64,000 nucleotides of DNA from Chaetoceros tenuissimus (taxonomy: Eukaryota; Bacillariophyta; Thalassiosirophyceae; Chaetocerotales; Chaetocerotaceae): assembly GCA_021927905.1 (NCBI GenBank), contig BLLK01000057.1:682001-746000 (forward strand). Reading direction: 5' to 3'. Of this stretch, positions 2,856-64,000 are shown piece after piece (the stretch's first letter is position 1; each line of letters opens with the position of its first letter). Both the position numbers and the translations under genes were made by a program. The notes beneath the pieces are model-generated. The model saw only the letters and a program-made list of their open reading frames with translations. It searched no databases and was not told where the DNA came from.

Positions 2856-3135
2856 ACCTAATAGAGAGGATATTCCGCCAATCAATGCAACTCCAATGCA
2901 ATGTTTACTCTCATTTATCAAGAGAGGAGATTTGAGAGGGAAACATGTGAGGGCTCATTGTTTTGACTCTACTCCACGCTGGTAGCTAGTGGTGATGAAA
3001 TCAATTACTACGAACAGCTAGTTTATAAGCAGCAGAAAGCAATTCCAAAGCAAAGTACTAACAGAAAATCATTCGCAATTGGAGTGGTGATCTTCAAGTG
3101 CAACTTCTTATTGACAAAGTCGTTAGCTCTTCATC
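2500..3135. other. Divergent intergenic region
   Basis: Separates the ankyrin gene (-) from the first LRR_5 gene (+), so it should hold both promoters. It contains a perfect CT microsatellite and no convincing gene. Open frames here on either strand are simple Leu/Ser or Arg/Glu readings of the CT run. Confidence 0.5.
2807..2852. repeat. (CT)23 microsatellite
   Basis: Twenty-three uninterrupted CT dinucleotides in the divergent promoter region. As a GA/CT tract upstream of two genes it could bind GAGA-type factors or influence nucleosomes, but that is inference. It should be length-polymorphic. Confidence 0.97.
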
Positions 3136-3960
3136 ATGAGGGTTGCTACAGTCGATGGTCTCGTGACTCTCTTTTATGACGGATCTGAGCCACTCTACAA
3201 TTCAGATCTACATGATGAGTGGTTTGTAAAATGGAACGAACATTATAGGAATGATGGTAATTGGGAAGATTGGGACCTTTCTGATGAATGTAAGAGATAC
3301 TGGGGAGAAAGGCAATCATGGCAGCAAATAATTGTTATCAATGGTGTCACTGAGATTCCAGATGTTACTTTCTGTTACTGCTTCAACATCAGATGTGTCA
3401 TCTTTGCTGATACAGTGATTAGAATTGAAATATCTGCTTTCTATCTTTGCAAAAGTCTTGTCTCCGTGAAGTGGTCCATCAACTTAGAATTCATTGGAGA
3501 AGCGTCATTCGAATATTGCGACCTTTCAAGTGTCTTCATTCCGCCAAGATGCAGAGAGATTGGAGAATATGCATTCTGTGGCAACAGGAACTTGGAAATT
3601 TTGAATGTTCCACAGAATGCAAATCTAGTGGAGCCACAATGGATCATTCGTGATACAGCACTTTACTCTAAATATCCACACCAACGAGCAGAAGTAGATG
3701 TATGGCTAAAGAATATCAACAATCATGACAAATTTGCTTTGCATAGAGTCTGTGCCTCTTTCGAACCGACTCTAGATTTGGTCCTCAATACTATGAAGGA
3801 AAAGGGAGGACTAAAGGCATTCAAGGTAGAGAATAGCATCGGCATTACTCCGTCACGATACTTGAATGAGAACCCATATGCTAAAGTAACGGAGAAGGAA
3901 GTCATTGAAAAATATGTCTTGCAGATGATGGGCGAAGTATCTAATACTGACGAAGTTTAA
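3136..3960 (+). CDS. BspA-type leucine-rich repeat (LRR_5) protein
   Basis: 274 residues starting MRVATVDGLVTLFYDG, the family's conserved N-terminus. Residues about 70-175 hold four to five LRR_5 repeats with the AFxxCxxLxxIxxPxxxxxIG rhythm (for example SSVFIPPRCREIGEYAFC). The last ~90 residues form a domain shared by all paralogues here: W(L/I)KNINN, LHRVCASFEP, then IGITPSRYL and ENPYAKV. LRR_5 repeats form an extended beta-solenoid for protein binding; the C-terminal domain has no name I can give. No signal peptide or TM segment is visible. The C-terminus is nearly identical to the gene at 49131-49958 on the other strand, so the two are recent inverted duplicates over that part. No intron needed. 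Confidence 0.88.
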   Translation: MRVATVDGLVTLFYDGSEPLYNSDLHDEWFVKWNEHYRNDGNWEDWDLSDECKRYWGERQSWQQIIVINGVTEIPDVTFCYCFNIRCVIFADTVIRIEISAFYLCKSLVSVKWSINLEFIGEASFEYCDLSSVFIPPRCREIGEYAFCGNRNLEILNVPQNANLVEPQWIIRDTALYSKYPHQRAEVDVWLKNINNHDKFALHRVCASFEPTLDLVLNTMKEKGGLKAFKVENSIGITPSRYLNENPYAKVTEKEVIEKYVLQMMGEVSNTDEV

Positions 3961-4879: not shown

Positions 4880-5151
4880 AGTTCCTAATAGAATCTCTCC
4901 ATTGTAATAAAAGAGAGACAACTAGTCTTCTTCTTCCCTTATATATCATATAATGCAGCACATACATTTTACTGCACATATATATAACTGCATATTTGAT
5001 GTGAGTCAATAGAATGGGTCGATATACATCTTTTGACGCATCGTGAAGGAACAACAAGCAACCTGCTCTCTCGCTTGAGAAGCTTGAGGACTCTTCTTCC
5101 AACATTCAGTCAACATTGATTTTATATAAACTCAAAAACTTTTTCTTTATC
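4880..5151 (+). promoter_or_regulatory. Duplicated promoter of an LRR_5 gene
   Basis: This stretch matches, in inverted orientation, the upstream region of the LRR_5 gene starting at 43782. Shared blocks are CTTATATATCATATAATGCAG, a TATATATAACTGCATATTTG block and TGAGTCAATAGAATGGGTC. Near the ATG both carry a TTCAGTC motif followed by a TATAAACTC block (here at 5105-5133). Conservation next to paralogous ORFs suggests it contains the core promoter and TSS; exact TSS not determinable. Confidence 0.5.
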
Positions 5152-5976
5152 ATGAGGATTGCTACAGTTGATGGTCTTGTGACTGTTTTCTACGAAGGAT
5201 CCAAACCACTCTACAATGAGCTGCTTGAAGAAGAGTTGAGTCATGCACATCAACAAAATCTGGATCCATCGGAAGAATGCAAGGAGTACCTATCGGAGAG
5301 ACTATCATGGCAGCAGGTAATTGTTGTTAAAGGAGTGACAATGATTCAATTTTGTTCTTTTAAAAGATGTGAAAATATAAAAAGGATTATCTTTGCTGAC
5401 ACAGTGACTCGAATTGATGCATCTGCCTTTGCCTATTGCAAAAGCCTATACTACATAAAACTTTCTATCAGCTTGAGATATGTAGGACGGGGCGCATTTC
5501 ATGGTTGCAAGCTTACATCTGTATTCATCCCGCCAAGGTGCAGATATATCGGAAATGCATTTGCTCACAACAAAAATTTGACAGTATTAAATGTTCCACA
5601 ACACATAGGTCTAGATACGAATGCTATTGAAAATACCAAGCTTTTTGAAATCTCTCCTTTTGAAAGTGAAAGAATGAAAGTTAGAGAAGCCTATAGATTG
5701 TATTTCTACGAGCGTCATCATGAGGAAATCAATTCGTGGCTCAAAAACACCAACATTAACGAAGAGTTTGCTTTGCATAGAGTTTGCGCCTCTTTCGAAC
5801 CTACACTGGACATGATTGTCGACGCCATGAAGGACAAAGGTGGACCCAAAGCTTTCAAAGTAGAGAACAGCATCGGAATCACTCCATCACGATACTTGAA
5901 AGAGAATCCATATGCAGAAGTCACCGAGAACGAAGTCATTGAAAAATACGTTTTGAAGATGATGGGAGAGTTGTAA
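5152..5976 (+). CDS. BspA-type leucine-rich repeat (LRR_5) protein
   Basis: 274 residues from the ATG giving MRIATVDGLVTVFYEG. An in-frame extension upstream has only a TTG, so this ATG, which matches the paralogues, is chosen. LRR_5 repeats lie at about residues 65-165 (AFAYCKSLYYIKLSISLRYV, then SVFIPPRCRYIG). The C-terminal family domain carries WLKNTN, LHRVCASFEP, IGITPSRYL and ENPYAEV. Compared with the gene at 3136 it lacks part of the acidic stretch before the repeats and has a longer linker with a Tyr/His-rich patch. Probably a soluble protein-binding protein. It shares its promoter with the frameshifted paralogue at 42935-43782. Confidence 0.88.
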   Translation: MRIATVDGLVTVFYEGSKPLYNELLEEELSHAHQQNLDPSEECKEYLSERLSWQQVIVVKGVTMIQFCSFKRCENIKRIIFADTVTRIDASAFAYCKSLYYIKLSISLRYVGRGAFHGCKLTSVFIPPRCRYIGNAFAHNKNLTVLNVPQHIGLDTNAIENTKLFEISPFESERMKVREAYRLYFYERHHEEINSWLKNTNINEEFALHRVCASFEPTLDMIVDAMKDKGGPKAFKVENSIGITPSRYLKENPYAEVTENEVIEKYVLKMMGEL

Positions 5977-7084: not shown

Positions 7085-7143
7085 AACATTATATTTCTAC
7101 TACATATTCATTATACAAATAAATTGAATAGCTGGCTTTTGAA

Positions 7144-7983
7144 ATGAGGGTTGCTACTGTTGACGGTCTCGTTACTCTCTTTTACGATGGATCCAAGCCA
7201 CTCTACAATTCAGATCTAGAGATGGAGTGGCTCGACAATTCCAAATACCATGGTTATAGTAGAATTGTTGACCGTTGGGAAGAATGGGATCTATCCGATG
7301 ATTGCAAGAGATACTGGAGAGAAAGACAGACATGGCAGCAAGTAATTGTTGTTGAAGGTGTCGTGGAAATTACAGAATTTTCTTTTCGTTATTGCAAGAA
7401 CATCAAGAGAGTCATCATGGCTGATACTGTTATCAGGATTGAAGAATATGCTTTCAACGGATGCAAAAGCCTTGCTTTTATCAAGTGGTCAATCAATATT
7501 GAAGTAATTGAGTATGATGCTTTCTATGGATGTAACCTTTCCAGTGTCTTCATACCGCCAAGATGCAGAGTAATTGGAGTCTCAGCATTTATGTTCAACC
7601 GCAACTTGGCACTCTTTCATGTCCCTCAGGATGCACAACTTGGTGATAAACTTCTTGCTCAAACAAAATTGATTAAAGGTTCTCCTTTCGAATTAGATAA
7701 ATATGGATGCTACGATGGTAGTCAAACTGAAGAAGTAAACAATTGGATCAAGAACATCAACAACGGTGACAAGTATTCACTTCATAGAGCTTGTAGCTCT
7801 TTTCAGCCCCTCAAGGAAGTACTCATGCCAATCGTAAGAAATCAAGGAATTGGAGCATTCCACATCCAGAACGACATGGGTATTACTCCATCTCAGTATT
7901 TGAAAGAGAATCCATATACTGATATGAAGGAGATGGATATTGTTAAGGAATATCTAATGACGATGATGGGAGAATTGGAGTAA
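7144..7983 (+). CDS. BspA-type leucine-rich repeat (LRR_5) protein
   Basis: 279 residues starting MRVATVDGLVTLFYDG at an ATG. LRR_5 repeats at about 70-170 include AFNGCKSLAFIKWSINIEVI and SVFIPPRCRVIG. The C-terminal family domain is a distinct variant: WIKNINNGDKYSLHRACSS, then MGITPSQYLKENPY and a terminal MTMMGELE. This variant is shared with the isolated fragment at 42356-42712, so the two are close relatives. No signal peptide, membrane segment or intron is visible. Likely a protein-binding solenoid; partner unknown. Confidence 0.88.
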   Translation: MRVATVDGLVTLFYDGSKPLYNSDLEMEWLDNSKYHGYSRIVDRWEEWDLSDDCKRYWRERQTWQQVIVVEGVVEITEFSFRYCKNIKRVIMADTVIRIEEYAFNGCKSLAFIKWSINIEVIEYDAFYGCNLSSVFIPPRCRVIGVSAFMFNRNLALFHVPQDAQLGDKLLAQTKLIKGSPFELDKYGCYDGSQTEEVNNWIKNINNGDKYSLHRACSSFQPLKEVLMPIVRNQGIGAFHIQNDMGITPSQYLKENPYTDMKEMDIVKEYLMTMMGELE

Positions 7984-10150: not shown

Positions 10151-11404
10151 TTAATCGTAAGAAAAATCATAAGGACTCAATTGACTGATAGATAAGACAT
10201 CATTCTGTAAATCAAAAGAGATATTGCCGATTCTATTTTCCTCACTATCTTCAATTCGTCTGTTTGAAACTGAGCCTTGATAAAGTACATTTTTACAATC
10301 CAAAGCAGCAGCATCTCCAGCGACCTGCTCGTTGTTAGAAGACGAGTCATGAGCACTCAATTGAGCAAGTGGTAAATGCTGCATGTCAAATGAGAAATTC
10401 TCAGAATGATTTAAAGCAACATCTCTAGCGACCTGTTCGTTGTTAGAAGACGAGTCATGAGCACTCAATTGAGCAAGTGGTAAATGCTGCATGTCAAATG
10501 AGAAATTCTCAGAATGATTTAAAGCAACATCTCTATCGACCTGTTCGTTGTTAGAAGACGAGTCATGAGCACTCAATTGAGCAAGTGGTAAATGCTGCAT
10601 GTCAAATGAGAAATTCTCAGAATGATTTAAAGCAACATCTCTATCGACCTGTTCGTTGTTACAAGACGAGCCATGAGCACTCAATTGAGCAAGTGGTAAA
10701 TGCTGCATGTCAAATGAGAAATTCTCAGAATGATTTAAAGCAACAGCATCTCCAGCGACCTGTTCGTTTTTAGAAGACGAGTCATGAGCACTCAATTGAG
10801 CAAGTGGTAAATGCTGCATGTCAAATGAGAAATTCTCAGAATGATCCACAGCTATATCTCTATCGACCTGCTCGTTGTTACAAGACGAGTCATGAGCACT
10901 CAATTGAGCAAGTGGTAAATGCTGCATGTCAAATGAGAAATTCTCAGAATGATTTAAAGCTATATCTCCATCGACCTGTTCGTTGTTACAAGACGAGTCA
11001 TGAGCACTCAATTGAGCAAGTGGTAAATGCTGCATGTCAAATGAGAAATTCTCAGAATGATTTAAAGCTATATCTCCAACGACCTGTTCGTTGTTACAAG
11101 ACGAGTCATGAGCACTCAATTGAGCAAGTGGTAAATGCTGCATGTCAAATGAGAAATTCTCAGAATGATTTAAAGCTATATCTCCATCGACCTGCTCGTT
11201 TTTAGAAGACGAGTCATGAGCACTCAATTGAGCAAGTGGTAAGTTATCATTCTTTGTATGAAAATAGAAATTGCCAGTATCTCCACCCTCCCAATCGTTG
11301 TTACAAGACGAGTCATGAGCACTCAATTGAGCAAGTGGAGAATTTTCATTGTGTACGATATTGTCCTTCGTGGTTACACTATGGTTAGAATTAAGTTCAT
11401 ACAT
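10151..11404 (-). CDS. Protein of 36-residue tandem repeats (PLAQLSAHDSS)
   Basis: 417 residues from the ATG giving MYELNSNHSV; two codons further upstream there is only a TTG. The body is a tandem array: ten PLAQLSAH(D/G)SS motifs, eight of them in full units of 36-37 residues ending ENFSFDMQH. The flanking first and last units are diverged. The repeats are acidic and polar with no Cys pattern, signal peptide or TM segment, so the protein may be largely disordered or a repetitive binding array. I do not recognise the family. The gene is divergent from copy 1 of the five-exon gene; its leader (TTACTTTCCAAAAGCA, then ACTTGAAAATG) is the one that precedes the RRM genes at the other two copies. 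The frame ends at a stop that interrupts a further repeat unit. Confidence 0.75.
   Translation of the reverse strand: MYELNSNHSVTTKDNIVHNENSPLAQLSAHDSSCNNDWEGGDTGNFYFHTKNDNLPLAQLSAHDSSSKNEQVDGDIALNHSENFSFDMQHLPLAQLSAHDSSCNNEQVVGDIALNHSENFSFDMQHLPLAQLSAHDSSCNNEQVDGDIALNHSENFSFDMQHLPLAQLSAHDSSCNNEQVDRDIAVDHSENFSFDMQHLPLAQLSAHDSSSKNEQVAGDAVALNHSENFSFDMQHLPLAQLSAHGSSCNNEQVDRDVALNHSENFSFDMQHLPLAQLSAHDSSSNNEQVDRDVALNHSENFSFDMQHLPLAQLSAHDSSSNNEQVARDVALNHSENFSFDMQHLPLAQLSAHDSSSNNEQVAGDAAALDCKNVLYQGSVSNRRIEDSEENRIGNISFDLQNDVLSISQLSPYDFSYD
10330..11265. repeat. 108-bp coding minisatellite
   Basis: Nearly identical 108-bp units in tandem (111 bp in units with one extra codon), each containing GAGCACTCAATTGAGCAAG. 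The period is a multiple of three, so copy-number change keeps the reading frame. High DNA identity between units indicates recent homogenisation. Confidence 0.95.
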
Positions 11405-11681
11405 TTTCAAGTATTGCTTTTGGAAAGTAAACGTCTTTTATTTATTTAATTTTATTCATTTGCAACTATATACCGTGGCTCTGTGAAACTTGGCCCGCCT
11501 CTGTAAATTCAAACGATCAAGATGTTGCTTCAAGAAAGCCACCATTCACATGGAATAAAATTCAAAACGAGTCTTGATTGTGTCGCCTTTTGGATATGAG
11601 AGACTGAATCAATCATGTGAATAAGTATGTACTGTACAACAGTTAGCATTTTAGCTTGATTCCCTCACCCTTTGAATATTA

Positions 11682-11720
<39 letters not shown>

Positions 11721-12052
11721 TCTCTAAGCAAGGGACTTGACATGATACATGTCAATGCCAATTTTAGGTTCCAATTTATTTGATTTTGTGATTATGGCGT
11801 TATTTTAACGGTAGTAATGTCTTTATAAGATTGCAGTACTTATGAAGTTTGATGGTTTTAGCTTCCAAATGACTCCATTCGTGTCATATGACTCCTGTCA
11901 ACATCAGCTTATTAGCGAAGGCAGACACAAACGCAGCTTCATTTTTTCTTCAGCACAAATCGCATCCAACCAACATAACCACAATTTCATTGTACTTCAA
12001 TACAATACAAACAATCCAGATAATAATAATACAATATATACTAATCATAATC
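11405..12052. promoter_or_regulatory. Bidirectional promoter, copy 1
   Basis: Lies between the tandem-repeat gene (-) and the five-exon gene (+). It is homologous along most of its length to 37676-38286 and 63056-63667, including GGTGAGGGAATCAAGCTAAAATG (read on the minus strand here), the CATGTCAAGTCCCTTGC block and the leader next to the minus-strand ATG. It differs by a TA expansion and diverges most near the minus-strand gene. Likely drives both genes. Confidence 0.55.
11681..11720. repeat. TA-rich microsatellite
   Basis: About 40 bp of almost pure AT dinucleotides, interrupted by two ATTTAT steps. The equivalent position in the other two promoter copies has only a short ATATATAAATAT tract, so the expansion is specific to copy 1. 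Confidence 0.9.
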
Positions 12053-15000
12053 ATGAATCATAGCTTCAAGAATTTGCCTCGTGCAAAAGAAGTGAACGAA
12101 CAACAGGGTGCAATGTACTCAACAGAAACAGTAAGTTTGTGAACGATGAAGTTGACACATGTTGACAGGAATTCAAACTCATCTCTATCTAACTCATTCC
12201 TTTCTCTTTCTATACAGTCTCTTCCTGGGAAGATCACATTCGGGGAATTCCAGCAACAGATATATGTCAGAGCACCACAGCCACTAAAAGGAAAAGAGGA
12301 AAACAAGAACGACAAGATGGTAAGGAAAAAGATATGTTGAATTGAGTCGCTGAATATTGGAATCAATGCACTCAACTCATTTCATTAAATAATAATATCA
12401 GGTCATGCAGAGTATTCTAAGAAATGCCATCTCTGGTTGCCAGATCGATATAAGACTCGCCAATAAACCTTCAAATGCTGTTGTTTCAAACCTCAAAGAA
12501 GAAGACACAGTTCGTCGTCCAAAGAGTATACTTCGAAATCAAGATGCAAAGTTTCCAGTTGACAGAAACCTTGCCAATCGGCTTCATTTACTAACAGATG
12601 ATGATGAAGAAGAGAAAACACATGAGGAACTTCTGTTGGGGCAAAGCAACTGTCTCAATGCTAATAGTCATGTCGGTGCACAAAAGAAGACACCAGCTGA
12701 AAGTAAGGCAGACGAAGCTTCTTCACATATCTCTGTAAGTAATATTTGCTCCATCTTATGTGGTCTCTTTGAATGCAACCTAACTTTGATTTTTTTATCT
12801 CTTTATCTATAATGTAACTAATTCATTCGGTCCAAAGAGCAATGCAAGAAGGCATCATGTTAATGCATATACAGGTTGTCGGATCAATGGAAGCAATGCC
12901 ATTTACAATCAAGATGCGGGTTCCTATCTAGCTTCGTTTCTAAGAAAAAAAAGAAGAGCAAGAAGATATCCAAGTCTCGTCATTTATCATAGTGATGATG
13001 AAGAAGAAGAGAAGTCAATTTCGTCTGTCATGCATACGACGAGTCAACAAAAGATACAGAAGAACAATGGCTCTCCAATAACTGACGACATTGAAAAATT
13101 CCCCAATGCACGTTTCGCTAGAAATATTGCCAAGTCTTCAAATGTTGTAAGAGTAAGTCATTGCAAGACTGAACAAATATAGATTATATAAATCCAAAGT
13201 ATCTTGGTCTAACAAAAGTACTCTCTTATAAGAAGGACCGCATCACTGTTGAAATCAAGAAGAGTTTCAGAGGATCGTATAGAGACCGATCAGACACCTA
13301 CCTTCGCCAATTTGAATTAGACAACAGAGGAACTGTTTGTTCAAAAGATTTACATGAGCAAGGCAAGCTTCGTCTAAGAGCTATTGCAAGACGGCATCTT
13401 TATATTCCTGTCGATCGTAGAGCTACGCTCATTGAACTCGGTGACCAAAACAGTAAAGGGAAGTGGCAGGGCAAGCACTTCTGTTCAAGTCTCTCTATGA
13501 TTGTGGAAGAGGAGATTGAATTGGATGTCTCAACACTAGCTCCAAACGAATCTACAAGAACTCTGTGTTCTTCATCTACAACTCTAGCAACAAGTCCTCC
13601 ATCAGTTACCATTGAATCTACAAAGCCAGAATTAGGTTTGAATACTGGTTCTACAGCTTCTTCGATTGTCTCAGGAGTAATTTCATCGTCAAGGCCATCA
13701 GACCCTTTCCCTTCTTCGCAATCCTTATTCAAGGTCACCAAGAATGGCAAGAGACGCAAATTGAATCCTGCTTCCGATGGTATAATAAATGCTACATACT
13801 CTCGGAGTACATCTTTACCTTACCCTTCTCCAAGCCCTTCACAACCTGTTGAAATCAGTGTTATGGCTATGGCCAAAGATTGTCAGATGCAAAAGGCAAT
13901 CAGTACCAATGACTCCAATATCCCTTTTCAGAAATCACTTACTCCTACCTCTCCAGAAAGTCGTCAAACTTCAAAGCAAGAGTCACCATTGCAACAGACA
14001 AATGTATCCACTTACTGCTTGTCTTCTCGTCAAGATGGATACAATGATATTGATCGAAGGAAACGAAGGAAGAGGTATCGACAATCAGAAGCTTGTACAT
14101 CACAGCATTCACACACCACATCACTAGTGCAAGAGTCGCCAATGACAAATGAGAATGTACCAATACCCTCATCATCAACACTAGCTCAAAGTGGACTCAA
14201 TGATATTGCTCAAAGGAAAAGCTGTAGACGAGCATCAACTTGTACATCACAGCATTCCTCAGATACCCCATCGCTTGTGCAAGAGTCGTCATTGACAAGT
14301 GAGACTGTACTAATACCCTCATCATCATCACTAGCTCAAAGTAGATCCAATGATATTGCACGAAGGAAACGAAGTAAAAGGAATCGACGAGCATCAACTT
14401 GCACTTCACAGCATTCCTCAGATACTCCATCTCTAGTGGAAGAATCATTGCTGTCATCTTCACCCTCAACCAAGGATCGAGGGAAGCTACTGAAATCTAA
14501 CCAACGCTCAGTGGAGGCATCGTTGTTACTGCTTCTTCCAGTCGGGCTTCTTGTTTCATCTGCTATAGAACATGCTCTAACCCATTGCAACAGCAAGATA
14601 GAAAAGACTGTAATCAAGGAACAAACTCCTCAACAATCTGACGAGACGCGTCATAGGAAAGAGATGTTTCGAGCGAGGAAGGCTAATCATCTGCCATTAT
14701 CTGTACTGAAGAAACAGCGCCAGGTGTTGCAACTTGTGGAAACTTCCGGCGAGGAGGGCTTTGAGTGGATACCAATCTGCATCAAGCAGGCGGCAAAGAA
14801 AGCATCTAAAGAGAAGAAGAAAGGGAGTAAGGAGTTGATATCAAGGGAGAGGTTACAACGGCGTGCTTTTACTCGACGAAGGCGTCATACACCAACTGAT
14901 ATCAATATGAAGAAGCTTTTGACTGCCCATCTGTATCGAGAAAAGAGAGGCAATGCTTCTAAGGTGAAGTCGAAGAAAGAGAAGAAAGGAGGAGGAAGGA

Positions 15001-15116
15001 GTGGGAGTCGAAGGGTGTTGGGTACGATACAAGAGGAGACATTAGCTGAATGTCGAGATGGTGGTTTCCTGGATAGTCTTGAGAATCCATCAATCTCTTG
15101 TATCAAAACTTCGTAG
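12053..15116 (+). CDS. Five-exon gene of unknown function, copy 1
   Basis: Exons inferred at 12053-12130, 12218-12319, 12402-12734, 12838-13152 and 13233-15116. All introns are GT..AG, phase 0, 80-103 bp, and are supported by alignment with the two other copies. The product is about 903 residues. Exons 1-4 encode basic segments with SILRN motifs, then acidic DDDEEEK and DDEEEEK tracts. Exon 5 begins KDRITVEIKKSFRGSYRDRS, turns Ser/Thr-rich, and carries three tandem units of about 50 residues (NDIxRRKRRK, then TSLVQES). Then come a hydrophobic stretch (LLLLLPVGLLV) and a Lys/Arg-rich C-terminus. RRKRRKRYR-type runs suggest nuclear targeting. No known domain recognised. It ends at a TAG where copies 2 and 3 have TCG, so it is five residues shorter. 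Intron 1 contains an in-frame stop here. Confidence 0.75.
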
Positions 15117-15205
15117 CTGCAGAAGGGTTAAATCTTTGAGATATATACCTGTTGCAAAACTTCGTAGCTGCAGAAGGGTTAAATCTTTGAGATATATACC
15201 TGTTG
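15104..15205. repeat. 51-bp tandem duplication over the stop codon
   Basis: Two near-perfect 51-bp units (each CAAAACTTCGTAGCTGCAG to CCTGTTG) starting a few codons before the end of copy 1. Copies 2 and 3 have only one unit, so the duplication is specific to this copy. Confidence 0.93.
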
Positions 15206-15225
15206 CAAAGCTTTGTGCGAGGTCT

Positions 15226-15258
15226 GACTTAGTGGTTCAAGTGTTGAGCTACCAAGTC
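15226..15258. repeat. Conserved 33-nt hairpin in the 3' flank, copy 1
   Basis: GACTT..AAGTC outer stem, GGT/ACC and CAA/TTG inner steps. The same 33 bases occur at 34684-34716 and 60045-60077, always about 100 bp after the stop codon. Could be a 3'-UTR structure; function unknown. Confidence 0.55.
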
Positions 15259-16046
15259 ATTGTTTGGAATCATACTTGTACTTGATAATGTTTTGAGACG
15301 TTTCATGTATAATTATGTTGTAATCTATCCAATGATTTCGAATCATATGGATACATGCCGATTCTTGTCATCACTTTGAGTGGTTACACTTCTCGGCTTG
15401 CCAGTGTTGGTAGGTTTGATGTTGCATCTCTCTACTACACTATACTTGTTAATTCTGTTTTGTATGCCACTGGTGTTTGTAATCACTATTGTTTGAGTGA
15501 TACACAGCTTGGTGTCTCTAGTAGTGGTAGGTTTGATGTTGTATCTCACCTTTCCACTTTGTATGCCGTTATTGTCATTACGGTATGTTATCGGCTGCAG
15601 TATTTTACATGATGTTGCATCATTGAAGTCTTTGTGCAGATTGTTGTTGTTACTTGTATGATGCTGCACCTGATTAGTGCATGCTTTGTCTCTGATGGAG
15701 ATGATGTGATTATGTGTATGTAGATATGTTGTTCTATGCACAATACTCATGTTGTTTTCATATTGTAAAAAATTCTAGTGTCAATCTTCCCCTGTTGATT
15801 ACTACCCAGAGAAAAGGAATAGGATTTCGGACAGCTCCTTCTATCACACGTTTCTAGCATGGTGATAGACAGACTGGACTAGGTCATCGTTACCCGCAGC
15901 CAGACTGACTAAATTTATCTACAGATGAATGATGTTGCTCTCATTACAGAGCTTGAACTGTTCCGTCCTTTTCCAAATCTGGGAATCATAGTAATCAACA
16001 GGGCAGTGAAGCACTTCCACATTGCTGAGCTTCGTTGGCAGCTTCC
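15259..16046. other. 3' flank of the repeated unit, copy 1
   Basis: Non-coding but homologous to 33960-34680 and 59265-60040 on the other strand, including GTGGTTACACTTCTCGG, a TACTACCCAGAGAAAAGGAAT block and CTGAGCTTCGTTGGCAGC. Repeated-unit homology therefore extends about 0.9 kb past the stop codon. Open frames here have no protein character. Confidence 0.6.
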
Positions 16047-16560
16047 TCGCAGCGCTCAGCGGGCAACATCTTGTATCAATTCAAGATGGCTAATGGCCAA
16101 CTCAATACACCTCAATACATATACGAAGTTGTTATTTCATTTGCTTCCAATCTTTTAGTATGGTTTCAGAATATATCATTATGGTTTATACTTTTAGATT
16201 ATGGAAGAAATTTCAAGTAATTTTTGAATAGTATGCATGTGCTTTACCTGTCGGCGCCATTGTGCGTGCAAAGCATGTCATAGTTGAATCAAGAGAGCTT
16301 CTATCGCAGCGCTCAGCGGGCAACATCTTGTATCAATTCAAGATGGCTAATGGCCAACTCAATACACCTCAATACATATACGAAGTTGTTATTTCATTTG
16401 CTTCCAATCTTTTAGTATGGTTTCAGAATATATCATTATGGTTTATACTTTTAGATTATGGAAGAAATTTCAAGTAATTTTTGAATAGTATGCATGTGCT
16501 TTACCTGTCGGCGCCATTGTGCGTGCAAAGCATGTCATAGTTGAATCAAGAGAGCTTCTA
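16047..16560. repeat. 257-bp tandem duplication
   Basis: Two essentially identical 257-bp units (TCGCAGCGCTCAGCGGGCAA to GAGAGCTTCTA). Copies 2 and 3 of the repeated unit have a single diverged version, so the duplication is recent and private to copy 1. Confidence 0.95.
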
Positions 16561-17380
16561 TAGAAGAACAGAAGACTACGAAGGCTCTACATTTTATTCA
16601 TTGTCAGGGTATGTTTGGAGTTTTGATTACACCGTGTAAACTTCTTCGTCATTATAAATCATAGAGCCACATTATGTAGATAGTGCTCCACTTCCATCCT
16701 GATCTTCAATACTAAATGACTGAAGCTTCAGTTCCTCCTTCTGCTAGGTAAACGATTGCACGATCAATTGTGGTAGAGATATAATAGGTCTATTGTATAA
16801 GCATCAACTCATGATCTCTCCCACCATAGTACAAATATCCATATATAGATATATTTATAATTCAGTATGTAGTGATTCAAAGCTCTCGAATCTTTGTACT
16901 TTGTTTTCATATATTTTCGAGCGAGCGAAAATATGCTAGAGAAAAGTTACACCAATGCTTGGCAATTCAGTTTTTACTTTTTAAACTGCTATAGCTCATG
17001 GCTGGTCGGAATGATAGTGACAAAGTTGGCATTATTCTTTGTATTATACTGGTGAATCTGAATGATTTACTAAAGATCTGATACGATCATTGATTCTACC
17101 ACTGGATAATTATGAATGGATGATTTGCGCCAAAATTTATGGCGGTTATAAAACCGTTACTATTTACTGTGCCAAATACGTACCAACGACATTTATTTTT
17201 CTGTGCACAAACGGGATTTTCCAAAACGAAAACATATCACATAAAAAATACAAACTAAAGAAAATCCTACATACCTCATCACTCCTCTCTACCAACACCT
17301 AAATTTCTAATGGTAAGTCTCTGCACTTTTCCTCATCTGGAAGTGGGGAGGAGGCAGCATGCTCTGAATTCCTTTTAAAA
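16561..17380. other. Intergenic, no gene seen
   Basis: AT-rich sequence without a convincing gene, RNA or repeat. Confidence 0.4.
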
Positions 17381-29265: not shown

Positions 29266-30198
29266 TTATGTCCTTTTGATTGGATCGAGACCGATCCATT
29301 CGCGGAGGATGTCATTATGGGAGAACTCATCGACTGGAGCGTCCATATGTGCTTCTCTAGCTGATCGAATAAGTAAGAGCCATTCCTTTTTTGTTTCGGT
29401 AGAGAGATCTTGTATAGTGTCAGGGTCCAAACGAAAGTGATGTGAATAAATAGAACGTGGTAGGGATCGTAAGCCCCTGCTCAGTTCTATTTTGATTGAC
29501 AGTTCAAGGGATTCTAGGCCCTTGAATTCGTCAATGGTACTAGTATTGTGGAGCAGTCTGTTACGTTCTGCCCACATTTGGTAAGTCATGTTCCAAAGTT
29601 TGGTAATGACATGCTTTGCCCAAGCCGTACCCGTACGTCTTGAGTGAAGCTGATTGTAATAAGTATGTTGACTACGGATTATATCCTTGTGGATAAACCC
29701 CGAAATGGTTGAATACCATCCGATATTGTTCTGGTTAGAAGCTATTGGAAGGAAGTCTTTGGATAGATTGACTGGAATGATGCCTCTATCGGGATTGTCC
29801 ATCCAACTTCGAATTCCGGTAACTAAGAAGTTTCTCAGCTGAGGCTCCGTTTCAAGGGAAGCTATAAATGTGTCTAGCTCTGTGAGCAATGTTTCGCGGA
29901 AGCAGTTTGTAGCGGGACAGGACAAAAGATGTACAATTGACTCTTTAGCCATTTTGCAACAAGGGCAAAGACTAGTATTGGAGTGTTGTCTCTGTACAAG
30001 ATTTTTTCCTGTGGGTAGATCATTTGCCATAAGTTTGGTAATAAATCGATTTTGCTTGAAGGAGCGTTCCTTGCGTGCACGTCGTATACTTGTCGATCCT
30101 ATGTCTTGTTGGAGAAGTGCTGAGGAGACTCCTGTTATCTCTGACCAGTAATCACAGACTGTACGTTTGTCCAAAACTGAGGTGATTGCTGGAGTCAA
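29266..30198 (-). pseudogene. C-terminal zf-RVT-like segment of the RT element
   Basis: A 310-codon open frame whose left edge is only a TTG; coding-like sequence continues upstream in the same sense, so this is an internal piece. It carries RFITKLMANDLPTG, then CPCCKMAKESIVHLLSCP, a zinc-binding pattern like the zf-RVT domain that follows the RNase H in many non-LTR reverse transcriptase proteins. Then comes a Trp-rich helical region (WAKHVITKLWNMTYQMWAER) common in these diatom elements. The zinc ligands (Cys78, Cys81, His90, Cys94 in this frame) appear intact. Broken from the RNase H segment by at least one frame change near 30360. Confidence 0.6.
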
Positions 30199-30363
30199 AT
30201 TAGAAGTGATATTGAAAGCATCGATCTTGATTGTAGAGATACCGACCTCTCTGGAAAAGTCTGTTGGTGGTGGGGATGTAAAGAAATGTGTTGCTATTTC
30301 TTTAGCATACTCATCTACAATACAGTTCAGATGTTCTAGAAAAGTAAGAGGTCTATGAAGTTC

Positions 30364-30824
30364 ATCAGCATGTCTTTGACATTAGTAGGTTGTGGGGAGT
30401 ATGGAACCTCTTCCCACAGTTCTAGCAATGATGAAATAAGATCCACAGATGTAGCAGAGGACTTCAGGTGAAAACGTTTGAGATGAAGACACTCAACTGC
30501 ACTATTATTGTCACTAGCTGTGATGATGGAGGCTTATGTCGGCTGTAGTGACGGAGTTAAAGCTTCTATGCAGTTAACAATACCAACTAAGGATCCTAAT
30601 TCACCTCTGTAAGAATTGAGATCATTTTCTAAGCATGGAATATAGCCACCTCCTTTAATCCATTGCATGCCATCATTGGAACAGATGATCCAGCCGCTTG
30701 TACAAATATCCATATGTTCAAAGTATGAGCCGTCACCCACACAGAGGGCAGCAATGTCCCGTAGGAGATCATCTATATCATCACTCATCTTGATAAATTG
30801 AAACAAGTATGGTATACGAGGCAA
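30364..30824 (-). pseudogene. RNase H-like segment of the RT element
   Basis: The open frame at 30534-30824 contains ALCVGDGSYFEHMDICTSGW and NSYRGELGSLVGIVNCIEAL. This matches the RNase H start (DGS, then a strand) and the NSYRxEL helix that carries the catalytic Glu. It continues to about 30364 with ITASDNNSAVECL, the DN catalytic Asp region. So the fold is recognisable with key acidic residues present. It is cut off from the RT segment by stops between 30825 and 31248, where coding-like remains such as DGTHLLYREDDNWFSYNQH persist. Confidence 0.6.
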
Positions 30825-34761: not shown

Positions 34762-37675
34762 TTAACCCTTCCGCAGCGACGAAGTTTTGATACAAGAGAT
34801 TGATGGATTCTCAAGACTATCCAAGAAACCACCATCTCGACATTCAACTAATGTCTCCTCCTGTATCGTACCCAACACCCTTCGACTCCGACTCCTTCCT
34901 CCCCCTTTCTTCTCTTTCTTCGACTTCACCTTAGAAGCATTGCCTCTCTTTTCTCTATACAGATGGGCAGTCAAAAGCTTCTTCATGTTGATATCAGTTG
35001 GTGTATGACGCCTTCGTCGATTAAAAGCACGCCGTTGTAACCTCTCCCTTGATATCAACTCCTTACTCCCTTTCTTCTTCACTTTAGATGCTTTCTTCCC
35101 CTCCTGTTTGATGCAAATTGGTATCCATTCAAAGCCTTCATCACTTGACGTTTCCACAAGTTGCAACACTTGGCGTTGTTTCTTCAGTACAGATAATGGT
35201 AGATGATTAGCCTTGCTCGCTCGAAACATCTCTTTCCTATGACGCGACTCGTCAGATTGATAATTAGCTGTTTGTTCCTTGATGACAGTCTTTTCTACCT
35301 TGCTGTTGCAATGGGTTACAGCATGTTCGATAGCAGATGTAACAAGAAGCGTGACTGGTAAGAGCAGTAACAAAGATGCCTCCAGTGAGCATTGGTTAGA
35401 CTTCAGTTGCTTCCCTCGATCCATGGTTGGGGGTGAAGATGAGGGTAGTGATTCTTCCACTAGAGATGGGGTATCTGAGGAATGTAGTGAAGTGCAAGAT
35501 GATGCTCGTCGATTCCTTTTCCTACATTTCCTTCGAGCAATATCATTGGGTCCACTTTGAGCTAGTGATGATGATGAGGGTATTGGAACATTCTCATTTG
35601 TCATTGGTGACTCTTGCACAAGCGATGTGGTATGTGAATGCTGTGATGTACAAGCTGCTGATCGTCGGTACCTCTTCCTTCGTTTCCTTCGATCAATATC
35701 ATTTGATCCACTTGGATGAGAAGACAAGGAAGAAGGGGATACATTTATCTGTTGCAATTGTGACTCTTGCTCTGAAGTTTGACTTGCTGGTGAGGTAGGA
35801 GCAAGTGATTTCTGAACAAGGTTATCGGAATCATTGCTACTCATCTCCTTTTGCATCTGACAATCATTGGCCATAGCAATAACTTCAATTTTAACAGGTG
35901 GTGGAGGGCTTGGAGCAGGGGAAGATGTACACCAAGAGTATGTAGCATCTATTATACCATTGGAAGCAGGATTCAATTTGCGTCTCTTGCCATTCTTGGT
36001 AACCTTGAATAGGGATTGTGAAGAAGGGAAAGGGTCTGATGGCCTGAACGATGAATCTAATGCAGATGCAATCGAAGAAGCTGTAGAACTATTAATCAAA
36101 TCTATTTCTGGCTTTGTAGATTCAGTGGTAATTGATGAAGGACCTGTAGCTGGAGTAGTAGATGAAAGCATATGCTCATTTGGAGCTGATGTGGAGACAT
36201 CCAATTCAATCTCCTCTTCCACAATCATAGAGAGACTTGAACAGAAGTGCTTGCCCTGCCACTTCCCTTTACTGTTTTGGTCACCGAGTTCAATGAGCGT
36301 AGCTCTACGATCGACAGGAATATAAAGATGCCGTCTTGCAATAGCTCTTAGACGAAGCTTGCCTTGCTCATGTAAATCTTTTGAACAAACAGTTCCTCTG
36401 TTGTCTAATTCAAATTGGCGAAGGTAGGTGTCTGATCGGTCTCTATACGATCCTCTGAAACTCTTCTTGATTTCAACAGTGATGCGGTCCTTCTTATAAG
36501 AGAGTACTTTTGTTAGACCAAGATACTTTGGATTTATATAATCTATATTTGTTCAGTCTTGCAATGACTTACTCTTACAACATTTGAAGACTTGGCAATA
36601 TTTCTAGCGAAACGTGCATTGGGGAATTTTTCTGTCTCGTCAGTTATTGGAGAGCCATTCTTCTTCTGTATCTTTTGTTGACTCGTCGCATGCATGACAG
36701 ACGAAATTGACTTCTCTTCTTCTTCTTCTTCATCAATATGATAAATGACAAGACTCGGATATCTTCTTGCTCTTCTTTTTCTTCTTAGAAACGAAGCTAG
36801 ATAGGAACCCGCATCTTGATGATAAATGGCATTGCTTCCATTGATCCGACGACCTGTATATGCATTAACATGATGCCTTCTTGCATTGCTCTTTGGACCG
36901 AATGAATTAGTTACATTATGGATCTAGAGATGAAAGAATCTAAGTTAGGTTGCATTCAAAACGACCACATAAGACGGAAGAAATAGTACTTACAGAGATA
37001 TGTGAAGAAGCTTCGTCTGCCTTGCTTTCAGCTGGCGTCTTCTTTTGTGCACCGACATGACTATTAGCATTGAGACAGTTGCTTTGCCCCAACAGAAGTT
37101 CCTCGTGTGTTTTCTCTTCTTCATCATCATCTGTTAGTAAATGAAGCCGATTGGCAAGGTTTCTGTCAACTGGAAACTTTGCATCTTGATTTCGAAGTAT
37201 ACTCTTTGGACGACGAACTGTGTCTTCTTCTTTGAGGTTTGAAACAACAGCATTTGAAGGTTTATTGGCGAGTCTTATATCGATCTGGCAACCAGGGATG
37301 ACATTTCTTAGAATACTCTGCATGACCTGATATTATTATTTAATGAAATGAGTTGAGTGCATTGATTCCAATATTCAGCGACTCAATTCAACATATCTTT
37401 TTCCTTACCATCTTGTCGTTCTTGTTTTCCTCTTTTCCTTTTAGCAGCTGTTGTGCTCTGACATATATCTGTTGCTGGAATTCTCCAAATGAGATCTTCC
37501 CAGGAAGGGACTGTATATAAAGAGCATGGAATGGGTTAGATACAGCTTGAGAGCGATGTGTATTGAATTCCTGTCCAGTCAAGTCATCGTCATCACTTAC
37601 TGTTTTTGAGTGCATTACACCCTGTTGTTCGTTCACTTCTTTTGCACGAGGCAAGTTCTTGAAGATATGATTCAT
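34762..37675 (-). CDS. Five-exon gene of unknown function, copy 2
   Basis: Exons at 37675-37601, 37510-37409, 37326-36994, 36890-36573 and 36492-34762, with introns of 90, 82, 103 and 80 bp in the same places as copy 1. About 852 residues, starting MNHIFKNLPRAKEVNEQQGV. Exon 5 has two of the tandem ~50-residue units instead of three, the hydrophobic LLLLLPVTLLV stretch, and the basic C-terminus (RRRRHTPTDINMKKLL), ending SSLRKG. Intron 1 is 90 bp with no in-frame stop, so intron retention would simply add 30 residues. This is the most diverged copy in exon 5. Divergent from an RRM gene. Likely nuclear by its basic runs; function unknown. Confidence 0.75.
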
Positions 37676-38286
37676 GATTATGATTAGTGTATGTTGTATT
37701 TTTAGTATCTGGATTGTTTGTATTGTATTGAAGTACAATGAAATTGTGGTTATGTTGGTGGATGCGATTTGTGCTGAAGAAAAAAGGAAGCATAGTTTGT
37801 GTCTGCTTCTTCGCTAATGACAGCATTCATATGACACGAATGGAGTCATTTGGGAAGCTAAAACCATCAAACTTCATAAGTACTGCAATCTTACAAAGAC
37901 ATTACTACCGTTCAAATAACCGCCAATAATCACAAAATCAAATAAATTGGAACGTATTTTTGGAATTTATATGTATCATGTCAAGTCCCTTGCTTTAGAC
38001 AACATGATAATATGAACATATATAAATATTATATTCAAAGGGTGAGGGAATCAAGCTAAAATGCTAACTGTTGTACAGTACCGTACATACTTATTCACAT
38101 GATTGATTCAGTCTTTCATATCCAAAGGCGATAGAATCAAGACTCGTTTTGAATTTTATTCCATATGAATGTTGGCGGGCAAGTGAGTGTGTTTTGCAGT
38201 GCCAACGGTATTACTGCAATTCAAAAATAAAAGCAAAGCATTTGCAACATAAAATATTACTTTCCAAAAGCAAAGAAGACTTGAAA
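37676..38286. promoter_or_regulatory. Bidirectional promoter, copy 2
   Basis: Separates the five-exon gene (-) from the RRM gene (+). Nearly identical to 63056-63667 along its whole length. Conserved landmarks are TATGTATCATGTCAAGTCCC, CAAAGGGTGAGGGAATCAAG, a GTACAGTACCGTACATAC palindromic block and the leader TTACTTTCCAAAAGCA before the plus-strand ATG. Open frames crossing it are accidental. Confidence 0.6.
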
Positions 38287-39456
38287 ATGCAAGATCAATC
38301 TGGCCGTAGCAGTGACTCCATCGATAAGGTGTCAGCTCTCTTTGACAAATACAAGGGAGTGATTTCTACTTGCGATCGCTGGTCTGAAATGGAGAATGGC
38401 GGAACTCTAGGAGCCAAGGTTGTGAAATATTTTACTGATGAATTGCAGAATAAAAGAGATACGATCATGACTATTTTGGAACCAACGTTGGAGACATTGA
38501 AAAAGGAAATGGAGGAAGTACAATCAGGGATTTCTATCTTGACGAAGATGATGAATATTATTCAAGACATTCCATCGAAAGCAGTTCACGAAAACGGTGC
38601 TTCGACCGAGGGTGTAAATGGGGAAGATTCAAATAATAGATGCAAAACTGACGTGATGGTAATTCTTTTTGAGGAATGCAAGAAAGTATTTTCTATTTGT
38701 GATCGCTTGTCTGCAATGGAGAATGTCGATGAAACCATGGGAAGCAGTTACGTGAAATGTTTCACCGAGGAATACAAGAAAAAAAGAGATACGATTGTAA
38801 CTATTCTGGAACCAACATTGGAGACATTGACCAAGGAAATGGATGAAGTACAATCATGGTTTTCTAGCTTGACAAACATGGTGAATACTATTCAAGAAAA
38901 TCAATCAAGTGATACCAATTTGGAAGATTCAAATAAAAGACGCAAAACCGAAGAAACTTGCAATGAATTTGAAAATACAGTTTATGTTACAAATGTCAAT
39001 AAAGACGCATCGAGAGAAGATGTCAAGGAAGCTTTCGAGAGCAAGTATGGTTCTGTCTCTTCAGTCAGACTACATGGCATAACTCCATTACGAAAGATTG
39101 CATATGTAGTATTTCAAAGTAAGAAGGATGCTACGAAAGCAAAACAATCAAAAGACGATTTTAAAGTGAGAGGACGCATTGTAAAAGTCAAGTCATATAG
39201 AACCAAGAAGACAAATGGATGCAAACAGATTTATTGCGGAGACTGTCCTCCAAGAGCAGAAAAGGATGATGTGAAAAATGCATTCAAGGATTGTGGAGTC
39301 ATCAATAAGGTGGATAAGCAAGGCACCGCTTGGATTGTCTTGTTTCATGAAGAAGAAGCTGCTGATAAAGCTGTGGCAATGAATGAAAAGTGTTTATTTG
39401 GCGATGATATAAAGACAAGAGTAGACTATAACAGCTCGAACAGCTCGAAAAAGTAA
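38287..39456 (+). CDS. Two-RRM RNA-binding protein with duplicated coiled-coil module
   Basis: 389 residues from the ATG giving MQDQSGRSSDSIDKVSALFD. The frame is open further upstream, but this ATG is conserved in both copies of the unit. Residues about 14-100 and 120-205 are a duplicated helical module (RDTIMTILEPTLETLKKEME and RDTIVTILEPTLETLTKEMD). Two RRM domains follow. The first has VYVTNV as RNP2 and IAYVVFQ as RNP1 (about 225-300). The second has QIYCGDCP and AWIVLFHEEEAADKA (about 312-380). The RNP aromatic positions are only partly kept, so RNA affinity may differ from canonical RRMs. Such proteins act in RNA processing or translation. Divergently paired with copy 2 of the five-exon gene. 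Confidence 0.82.
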   Translation: MQDQSGRSSDSIDKVSALFDKYKGVISTCDRWSEMENGGTLGAKVVKYFTDELQNKRDTIMTILEPTLETLKKEMEEVQSGISILTKMMNIIQDIPSKAVHENGASTEGVNGEDSNNRCKTDVMVILFEECKKVFSICDRLSAMENVDETMGSSYVKCFTEEYKKKRDTIVTILEPTLETLTKEMDEVQSWFSSLTNMVNTIQENQSSDTNLEDSNKRRKTEETCNEFENTVYVTNVNKDASREDVKEAFESKYGSVSSVRLHGITPLRKIAYVVFQSKKDATKAKQSKDDFKVRGRIVKVKSYRTKKTNGCKQIYCGDCPPRAEKDDVKNAFKDCGVINKVDKQGTAWIVLFHEEEAADKAVAMNEKCLFGDDIKTRVDYNSSNSSKK

Positions 39457-39862
39457 TGAATGAGGTTCTGATGCCTGAGTGAAAAGAAATCTCTGTGCAT
39501 CTTGTGAAAGACTTTCGATGTACTATGTAAACTACTAAACAAATATTCTCTACAAAGATTGATTACATTTTGTTTTACAACCCTATCTTGACTCTCAATC
39601 TCCCAGAAGAAAAGTATTCCGGAAGTCCTCCTCTCCCACGAGAACTCCTGCCATGCACAAATATGTTGATATTCTTCTCAATTCGTATATTCCTTGAATG
39701 TGAGCATCATAGTTACCCCATTTATCAAATTCAAAATGAGTTGTATGTAGTGGTTGAAACTAACGGAGAAACTTATACAGTAAGTAGTTATCAGGTACGA
39801 GATAAGTAGGTAGGTAGACAACTTTTAGATTAAGTAAGGTAGTTAACAGGTTCGAAAAGGAT
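39457..39862. other. Convergent intergenic region
   Basis: 3' sides of the RRM gene (+) and an LRR_5 gene (-). No further gene seen. Confidence 0.5.
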
Positions 39863-40642
39863 TTAAAGGAAAATTTCACCCATCTTGTCAAAAATATCTG
39901 TCTTGATAATCTCTTGTTGATCAATATTTGCAAATGGGTTTTCAGAAAGGTATCGGGCTGGTGTGATTCCAATCTCATTGGTTTTCTTGAACAGAGACAA
40001 GTCCTGTTGTTGCACAATTGCCAAAAGGACGTTTTGATCAGGATTGAACGATGCACATGCCCGATGAAGTTCATAGTCTTGATTGTTGTTAATATTCTTG
40101 ATCCATGCATTCACTTCATCATGATATTCCTGATTACCATGTTCCTCTGGTTCGAATGGAGATGCTTCAAACAATGCAGTAAGTCCAATCACAAATCTTC
40201 CAAGTTGAGTGTGTTGAGGAACATGGAAGATGATCAACTCTTCACAATGAAAAAATGCCCATCTACCAATCTCTATACAAGATGGCGGAATGAAGATTGA
40301 AGTCAGCGATTTACAGCAATGGAATGCAAACTCTCCGATGAATTCGAGGTTTCTTGATAGCTTGATATATGCTAGCGTACAGCAATCAGCGAAAGCCCAC
40401 TCTTCAATTCTTCTCACTGTATCACTCAAGATAACAGTCTTGCGTATTTTAAAATCAACGAAAGTATTCCGAGGAATGATTTCAACTCCAGGCAATATAA
40501 TGATGAGTTCAATTTTACAACTTTCTTGTACACTGATAGTAGGTAACCCTCCGTTGTAAAAATAAGTCCTCTTTCCTTTGTACAAATGTACTCCTTGGCC
40601 CTTGTTGACTATCTCATTCCATTCTTCTGTTGATATCTTCAT
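39863..40642 (-). CDS. LRR_5 protein, MYKGK/HLYKGK subfamily
   Basis: 259 residues from an ATG (MKISTEEWNEIVNKGQGVHL). The N-terminus differs from the MRVATVDG subfamily and matches the gene at 53917 (RIAAEEWQRF, then MYKGKKTLFYNG). LRR_5 repeats at about 60-155 include AFADCCTLAYIKLSRNLEFI and SIFIPPSCIEIGRWAFF. The C-terminal family domain is complete: WIKNINNN, LHRACASFNP, IGITPARYLSENPF. No signal peptide or TM segment. Probably a protein-binding solenoid like its paralogues; no intron. Confidence 0.88.
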   Translation of the reverse strand: MKISTEEWNEIVNKGQGVHLYKGKRTYFYNGGLPTISVQESCKIELIIILPGVEIIPRNTFVDFKIRKTVILSDTVRRIEEWAFADCCTLAYIKLSRNLEFIGEFAFHCCKSLTSIFIPPSCIEIGRWAFFHCEELIIFHVPQHTQLGRFVIGLTALFEASPFEPEEHGNQEYHDEVNAWIKNINNNQDYELHRACASFNPDQNVLLAIVQQQDLSLFKKTNEIGITPARYLSENPFANIDQQEIIKTDIFDKMGEIFL

Positions 40643-63667: not shown

Positions 63668-64000
63668 ATGCAAGATCAATCTGGCCGTAGCAGTGACTCC
63701 ATCGATAAGGTGTCAGCTCTCCTTGACAAATACAAGGGAGTGACTTCTATTTGTAATCGCTTGTCTGAAATGGAGAATGGCGGAACTCTAGGAGCCAAGG
63801 TTGTGAAATATTTTACTGATGAATTGCAGAATAAAAGAGATACGATCATGACTATTTTGGAACCAACGTTGGAGACATTGAAAAAGGAAATGGAGGAAGT
63901 ACAATCAGGGATTTCTATCTTGACGAAGATGATGAATATTATTCAAGACATTCCATCGAAAGCAGTTCACGAAAACGGTGCTTCGACCGAGGGTGTAAAT
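63668..64000 (+). CDS. RRM coiled-coil gene, second copy (3' end outside the window)
   Basis: 111 codons from the ATG giving MQDQSGRSSDSIDKVSALLD, open to the window edge. It matches the first 111 residues of the gene at 38287-39456 with only a few replacements in the first 50 residues (for example VTSICNRLSEME for VISTCDRWSEME). It covers the first helical module (RDTIMTILEPTLETLKKEME) and part of the linker. The RRM domains would lie beyond the window. Divergently paired with copy 3 of the five-exon gene. Confidence 0.85.
   Translation, partial: MQDQSGRSSDSIDKVSALLDKYKGVTSICNRLSEMENGGTLGAKVVKYFTDELQNKRDTIMTILEPTLETLKKEMEEVQSGISILTKMMNIIQDIPSKAVHENGASTEGVN

What the first reader, a model, noticed from the sequence alone, without database searches (positions are those of the whole stretch)
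12053..15116. Unrecognised five-exon gene present in three copies within 52 kb
The same five-exon architecture (phase-0 introns of 80-103 bp) occurs at 12.1-15.1, 34.8-37.7 and 60.1-63.1 kb, always with a shared promoter and about 0.9 kb of conserved 3' flank. The encoded 850-900 residue protein has basic runs, acidic tracts, tandem Ser-rich units and one hydrophobic stretch, and I can place it in no family. This is either a recently expanding lineage-specific gene or the cargo of an uncharacterised mobile unit.
Basis: partly seen in the sequence, partly recalled or inferred. Interest (0 to 1): 0.75.

Follow-up and report, generated by a model that had tools for sequence, protein, structure and literature searches.

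The report
Clustered five-copy diatom orphan gene family
Five copies of a real but unrecognised protein-coding gene sit near each other on one chromosome piece of what is probably a small marine diatom, and they most likely arose by local DNA duplication and copy-over between copies, not as a mobile element.

Summary
Three copies of one five-exon gene lie in the window: A 12053-15116 (+), B 37675-34762 (-), C 63055-60121 (-), encoding 903, 852 and 859 aa; A's introns are 80-103 bp, phase 0. The gene is real: dN/dS at both ends of exon 5 is mostly 0.1-0.3, and all 48 pairwise gaps in exon 5 are multiples of 3, against 34 of 140 in the 3' flank. The genome holds two more copies, D and E, on the same contig; the five span about 180 kb and searches found no others. 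D and E carry a repeated phase-0 exon of 82 residues that A-C lack. Introns and flanks are copied, extents vary, and B, C and D share a head-to-head RRM gene: segmental duplication plus gene conversion, not a mobile unit. No Pfam, NCBIfam or PDB match worth using; AlphaFold gave no usable model. Function is only inferred: a basic, probably disordered and nuclear protein. No other eukaryote could be searched, so lineage restriction is untested.

The parts
12053..15116 (+). Copy A, five exons (12053-12130, 12218-12319, 12402-12734, 12838-13152, 13233-15116), 903 aa
34762..37675 (-). Copy B, five exons (37601-37675, 37409-37510, 36994-37326, 36573-36890, 34762-36492), 852 aa
60121..63055 (-). Copy C, five exons (62978-63055, 62786-62887, 62371-62703, 61953-62267, 60121-61872), 859 aa
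11538..12052 (+). Copy A 5' flank/promoter region; 94% (D), 87% (B, C) and, for its inner part, 71% (E) identity. A further 29-40 bp island at about 11402-11441 matches the start of the RRM gene of B, C and D
15117..16206 (+). Copy A 3' flank shared with the other copies (in pieces with B); indels show no multiple-of-3 pattern; shorter colinear islands lie further out
14092..14443 (+). Ser-rich tandem units of about 147-150 bp in exon 5 of copy A; A has one 147-bp unit more than each of the other four copies
14511..14567 (+). Most hydrophobic 19 residues of copy A (residues 703-721)
   Evidence: coordinates computed by hand
14568..15116 (+). C-terminal part of copy A after the hydrophobic stretch: basic tail under purifying selection
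38287..39456 (+). Head-to-head partner gene of copy B: 389 aa with RNA recognition motifs
63668..64000 (+). Head-to-head RRM partner gene of copy C, runs off the window end (386 aa in full on L011)

Best explanation
A real protein-coding gene family without a known domain, of five members on one stretch of about 180 kb of one contig. SHOWN: DNA-level segmental duplication (introns and flanks copied, with a divergently transcribed RRM gene in three of the five), block-wise sequence exchange between copies, and change of internal repeat number (an 82-residue phase-0 exon in D and E; a Ser-rich unit of 49 residues in exon 5). Two regions of exon 5, the 99-residue head and the C-terminal 200 residues, are under purifying selection; the Ser-rich middle is much less constrained. 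INFERRED (about 0.3): the product is a largely disordered, strongly basic (net +41 to +51) nuclear, nucleic-acid- or chromatin-associated protein, with the constant head and tail doing the binding and the repeat-rich middle acting as a length-variable linker, possibly fixed to a membrane by the single hydrophobic stretch, and co-regulated with the RRM protein across the shared promoter. The confidence given is for the SHOWN part.
For: Gene models and intron phases. dN/dS in exon 5, pairs with dS above 0.1: head 0.29-0.32, C-terminal part 0.13-0.26, Ser-rich middle 0.65-0.75. All 48 exon-5 gaps keep frame. Five copies, one contig. Extents of homology vary by pair. Mosaic: 156 informative sites in exon 5; 24 of 26 in the first 300 nt unite D and E, 98 of 104 in the next 800 nt unite A and C, the last 26 are mixed; 30 changes of split along the exon against a shuffled mean of 84.4 and minimum 70 in 5000 shuffles. 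B and C differ by 0-2.5% per 250-column bin over the promoter and RRM gene (37751-39500) but by 11-14% in the bins from 35029 to 36255. Intron 2 identical in A, B and C. RRM gene beside B, C and D; its 5 matches in the genome are all on C43. Basic runs in all five copies and no hydrophobic N-terminus.
Against: No RNA data, so splicing is inferred. E lacks the AG at the exon-2 acceptor that the other four have; E may be a dead copy or hold an assembly error. A and E have no RRM gene, so that pairing is not obligatory. D-E in the head give dN/dS 0.88 and B-D in the middle 0.84, from few changes. The strong BLAST alignments of A-C, A-E, C-D, C-E and D-E all stop within about 100 bp of one another on the 3' side and those of A with B, C and D stop at the same 5' base, which is what a unit with fixed ends would give; only the more sensitive pass shows islands beyond. 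AlphaFold models are far below use (mean pLDDT 42.2 and 33.1), which fits disorder but equally fits a three-row alignment. Localisation rests on composition alone, and the hydrophobic stretch argues against a purely soluble nuclear protein. The RRM gene shows dN 0.012 and dS 0.013 for B-C, and 0.36 and 0.66 for B-D, so constraint on it is weak or unresolved.
Confidence: 0.75

Rival explanations
1. The copies are the cargo of an uncharacterised mobile element that inserts with fixed ends.
For: Multi-copy, both orientations, flanks copied along. In one search the strong alignments end close together: 5' side of A at C43:693538 against B, C and D alike; 3' side in A at 698202 (C) and 698224 (E), in E at 669584-669654 (A, C, D), in C at 741085-741175 (A, D, E). 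A retroelement remnant (zf-RVT frame) lies in the window.
Against: All copies found are on one contig within about 180 kb. B-C-D run on through the RRM gene, A-D run on to 699526 and B-E to at least 713892. A more sensitive pass found colinear islands of about 30-70 bp beyond the apparent ends: on the 3' side in A-B, A-C, A-E, C-D, D-E and B-D; on the 5' side of A against B, C and D, where A's divergent frame keeps the start-codon context of the RRM gene. No island beyond was found for B-C and C-E on the 3' side. Introns are kept, so no retrocopy. Of 40 inverted pairs in 11400-16700, the 25 longest were listed; the only one spanning the unit near its ends is 22 nt at 77%, A+T-rich. No transposase matched in the unit.
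Confidence: 0.05
2. Some copies are haplotype or assembly artefacts of one locus in a heterozygous diploid.
For: The C. tenuissimus paper reports 1.56% heterozygosity (PMC8613185, passage); B and C are 98.2% alike over 1641 bp of promoter and RRM gene.
Against: Five copies at distinct places on one contig with different neighbours; exon 5 differs by 5.8-11.8% for all pairs but A-C, well above 1.56%. A and C (97.7% in exon 5) lie in opposite orientation with different 5' neighbours.
Confidence: 0.06
3. A recognition or conflict gene family (self/non-self, mating, or a selfish killer) whose variable exon array is the specificity-bearing part.
For: Constant ends around a centre of variable repeat number; E repeats are 98.8-99.6% alike, so array change or homogenisation is recent; sequence exchange between copies; LRR_5 genes nearby.
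Against: No signal-peptide-like N-terminus; dN does not exceed dS in any pair or region of exon 5 (the variable exons were not tested); the repeat exons are nearly identical within a gene, which is homogenisation and not diversification; no population data.
Confidence: 0.08

Closest known systems
Clustered eukaryotic gene families under concerted evolution (segmental duplication plus ectopic gene conversion); recalled as a kind, no single named family
   Same: Local cluster, mosaic sequences, both orientations, flanks duplicated, purifying selection on part of the protein
   Different: The family has no known domain and stands head-to-head with an RRM gene in three of five copies; lineage restriction not shown
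Genes grown by tandem duplication of symmetric (phase 0-0) exons; recalled as a kind
   Same: 328-bp unit of exon plus intron, exon of 246 nt, phase 0 on both sides, so each added exon keeps frame
   Different: Only D and E carry the array; exon 3 of A matches parts of both D exon 3 and D exon 6, so A-C look like a collapsed form or D/E like an expanded one
Diatom LRR_5 (BspA-type) family, reported with 385 paralogues in one orthogroup of C. tenuissimus (PMC8613185, passage read)
   Same: Interspersed in the same region and multi-copy
   Different: No domain shared with the gene described here

Membership tests
Locally duplicated gene family (segmental duplication) | Copies near one another on one chromosome stretch | tested here: met
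   5 of 5 copies found on C43, 565-745 kb
Locally duplicated gene family (segmental duplication) | Introns and non-coding flanks copied; extents vary by event | tested here: met
   several strong alignments do end close together, see rival 1
Locally duplicated gene family (segmental duplication) | Sequence exchange between copies | tested here: met
   Block structure of splits in exon 5, 0 of 5000 shuffles as clustered
Mobile element | Common sharp termini in all copies | tested here: not met
   A-D, B-E and B-C-D run on; islands beyond the ends in most other pairs
Mobile element | Dispersed copies | tested here: not met
   (only the best candidates are scored, so absence elsewhere is not proven)
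Mobile element | Transposase, integrase or reverse transcriptase in the unit | tested here: not met
Mobile element | Target-site duplications | not tested
   No agreed ends at which to look
Lineage-specific (orphan) gene | No homologue outside the lineage | not testable with these tools
   No other eukaryotic genome held. Scans of viral and prokaryotic contigs with the exon-5 head found none, which says little
Lineage-specific (orphan) gene | No match to known domain families | tested here: met
   No match reaching a curated cut-off in Pfam; none in NCBIfam for four pieces at E<=1; none in PDB sequences for the head and the exon-5 profile

The most novel reading that the evidence does not exclude
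A variable-array gene family in which constant, nucleic-acid-binding ends flank an exon array that grows and shrinks in whole 82-residue steps, kept head-to-head with an RRM gene, serving as a fast-changing intracellular recognition or conflict system of a bloom-forming diatom.
Probability: 0.06. Interest if true: 0.75.

Novelty: new member of a known kind. Interest (0 to 1): 0.33.

Why it matters
It adds a domain-less, selected, multi-copy gene family to a diatom genome. It also gives a compact case (five copies, two independent repeat systems, clear exchange blocks) in which exon gain and gene conversion can be followed step by step. As biology of the cell it matters only once a function or a wider distribution is shown.

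Tried and rejected
Mobile-unit reading: disfavoured on distribution, ends, introns and lack of a transposase match; the nearly coincident ends of several strong alignments were the best point for it, and one search was run to test them. A second gene hidden in the 3' flank: A has a 143-aa stop-to-stop frame on the - strand; the matching frame is 135, 112 and 99 aa in C, E and D, B lists no frame on that strand of 60 aa or more, and the flank's indels ignore frame; rejected. Retrocopy: rejected, introns kept. Subtelomeric cluster: none of the 69 listed runs of four TTAGGG lies on C43; not supported. Prokaryotic or viral relatives: none confirmed in viral contigs or genome contigs with the exon-5 head. 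Structure: two AlphaFold jobs of too low confidence, so no fold search was made. Literature: besides (to identify the organism), three searches (diatom orphan genes with tandem duplication; diatom ectopic gene conversion; C. tenuissimus tandem gene family, listings only) showed nothing on this family; the only paper opened was PMC8613185 (passages). The exon-4 acceptor was first placed wrongly at 12875 and corrected to 12838.

Full report
SETTING. The window is C43:682001-746000 of a genome of 41,027,912 bases in 68 contigs. Size and G+C (38.4% in the window), the LRR_5 genes and TTAGGG arrays fit the diatom Chaetoceros tenuissimus NIES-3715: 41.0 Mb, 38.9% G+C, 385 paralogues in an LRR_5 orthogroup, TTAGGG repeats (PMC8613185, passages). 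That paper counts 85 scaffolds, not 68.

OBSERVATION. The five-exon gene is there three times, as described. All four introns of A are GT..AG, phase 0 and 80-103 bp. Proteins are 903, 852 and 859 aa once the true stops of B (34762) and C (60121) are used. A ends five codons before the other four because of an earlier TAG.

IS IT A GENE? Yes. Among the five copies in the genome, exon 5 shows dN/dS of 0.29-0.32 in the 99-residue head (6 of 10 pairs, those with dS above 0.1), 0.13-0.26 in the C-terminal part (9 of 10 pairs; C-E, with dS 0.097, gives 0.31) and 0.65-0.75 in the Ser-rich middle (6 of 10 pairs). The pairs left out have few changes and range from 0.13 (A-C, B-C, head) to 0.88 (D-E, head; 1 synonymous and 3 other changes); A-B do not differ in the head. 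All 48 pairwise gaps in exon 5 are multiples of 3, whereas 106 of 140 in the 3' flank are not. Pairs are not independent and a few gaps lie at stretch ends, but the contrast is plain.

HOW MANY COPIES. A protein search with exon 5 gave 9 matches at E<=0.001, in five loci on C43; a 313-aa query from copy D gave 19 matches at E<=10, in the same five loci. The 5' and 3' flanks as DNA also fall in these five loci. The tool states that counts of large families are lower bounds. Copies: D at C43:565.3-568.9 kb (+), E at 670.6-674.6 kb (-) (coordinates), then A, B and C.

TWO FORMS. D and E share exons 1-2 and the last exon with A-C but differ in between. D has 7 exons and E 9. Both have a 246-nt, 82-residue phase-0 exon with an 82-nt intron (328-bp unit); counting a first unit that is shorter, two in D and four in E. 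Within E the units are 98.8-99.6% identical as DNA. Exon 3 of A matches D exon 6 (53% over 70 columns) and D exon 3 (46% over 82 columns), so A-C look like a fused form, or D/E like an expanded one. In D and E intron 2 is phase 1, not 0, and the frame is restored by the length of exon 3. E has CAA instead of CAG before exon 2.

HOW THEY SPREAD. Introns and flanks are copied, so duplication was of DNA. B and C share 5 kb that includes a divergent gene with RNA recognition motifs, which also stands by D. A and D share 3' sequence up to 699526, B and E to at least 713892. Against this, the strong alignments of A-C, A-E, C-D, C-E and D-E end within about 100 bp of one another on the 3' side, and those of A with B, C and D end at one 5' base, as a unit with fixed ends would. 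A more sensitive pass found colinear islands of about 30-70 bp further out in A-B, A-C, A-E, C-D, D-E and B-D on the 3' side (none in B-C and C-E), and a 29-40 bp island on the 5' side of A. That 5' island is the start-codon context of the RRM gene: A's own divergent frame (10151-11437, first ATG at 11404) begins there and then has an unrelated 108-bp repeat body. So the homology was once longer than the strong alignments, and a mobile unit is not needed.

EXCHANGE. In exon 5 the grouping of copies changes in blocks: D with E in the first 300 nt (24 of 26 informative sites), A with C in the next 800 nt (98 of 104), mixed in the last 26 sites; 30 changes of split along 156 sites against a shuffled mean of 84.4, none of 5000 shuffles reaching it. 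B and C differ by 0-2.5% per bin from 37751 to 39500 (5.1% in the last bin) and by 11-14% in the bins from 35029 to 36255, but by 1.2% at 36255 and 4.4% at 34779. That is gene conversion or unequal crossing over.

WHAT THE PROTEIN IS. No Pfam model reaches its cut-off; NCBIfam gave none for exon 5 and exon 3 of A and exons 5 and 6 of D; PDB sequences gave none for the head at E<=10 or for the exon-5 profile at E<=1. Sub-threshold names (RNase_PH_C 0.12, DUF4054 0.14, a ferlin dsrm-like domain 1.0, a PHROG of unknown function 0.11) are not usable. AlphaFold with three near-identical rows gave mean pLDDT 42.2 and 33.1. Composition: 15.6-16.7% K+R, 18.8-20.7% S+T, net charge +41 to +51, basic runs in every copy, one hydrophobic stretch in the last third (mean 2.04-2.21), no hydrophobic N-terminus. 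From this I infer, with about 0.3 confidence, a disordered basic nuclear or nucleic-acid-associated protein, perhaps membrane-anchored; the shared promoter with an RRM gene in three of five copies is weak support for a role near RNA.

VERDICT. A real, domain-less, clustered gene family shaped by segmental duplication, sequence exchange and exon-array change. New as a family as far as the libraries searched show, ordinary as a kind. Whether it is confined to one lineage could not be tested.

Noticed in passing
window 44860-47357: Head-to-tail duplication of 1250 bp at 99.92% identity, either very recent or an assembly duplication.
   Followed up: no
window 10151-11437 (-): 428-aa stop-to-stop frame, largely a 108-bp (36-residue) repeat in 8.6 copies, head-to-head with copy A; its first ATG (11404) keeps the start-codon context of the RRM gene that stands there in B, C and D. 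No Pfam match above cut-off.
   Followed up: partly
window 3127-3960, 5047-5976, 7132-7983, 39863-40654, 43051-43845, 49131-49979, 53758-54786: Seven frames with LRR_5 (BspA-type) matches, a second multi-copy family woven through the same region.
   Followed up: partly
window 29266-30381 (-): Frame with a zf-RVT match, probably a retroelement remnant.
   Followed up: no
L014 (C43:766000-774000), about C43:769259-769831 (-): A fourth, distant RRM-gene relative (35% identity) on the same contig; the searches found no copy of the described gene beside it.
   Followed up: partly
L010 (copy E), exon 2 acceptor: The acceptor reads CAA where the other four copies have CAG; E may be inactive or the assembly wrong there.
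   Followed up: no
window 16040-16561 and 15104-15213: A 257-bp tandem duplication (99% matches) at the 3' edge of copy A's shared flank, and a 51-bp tandem duplication across copy A's stop codon.
   Followed up: no
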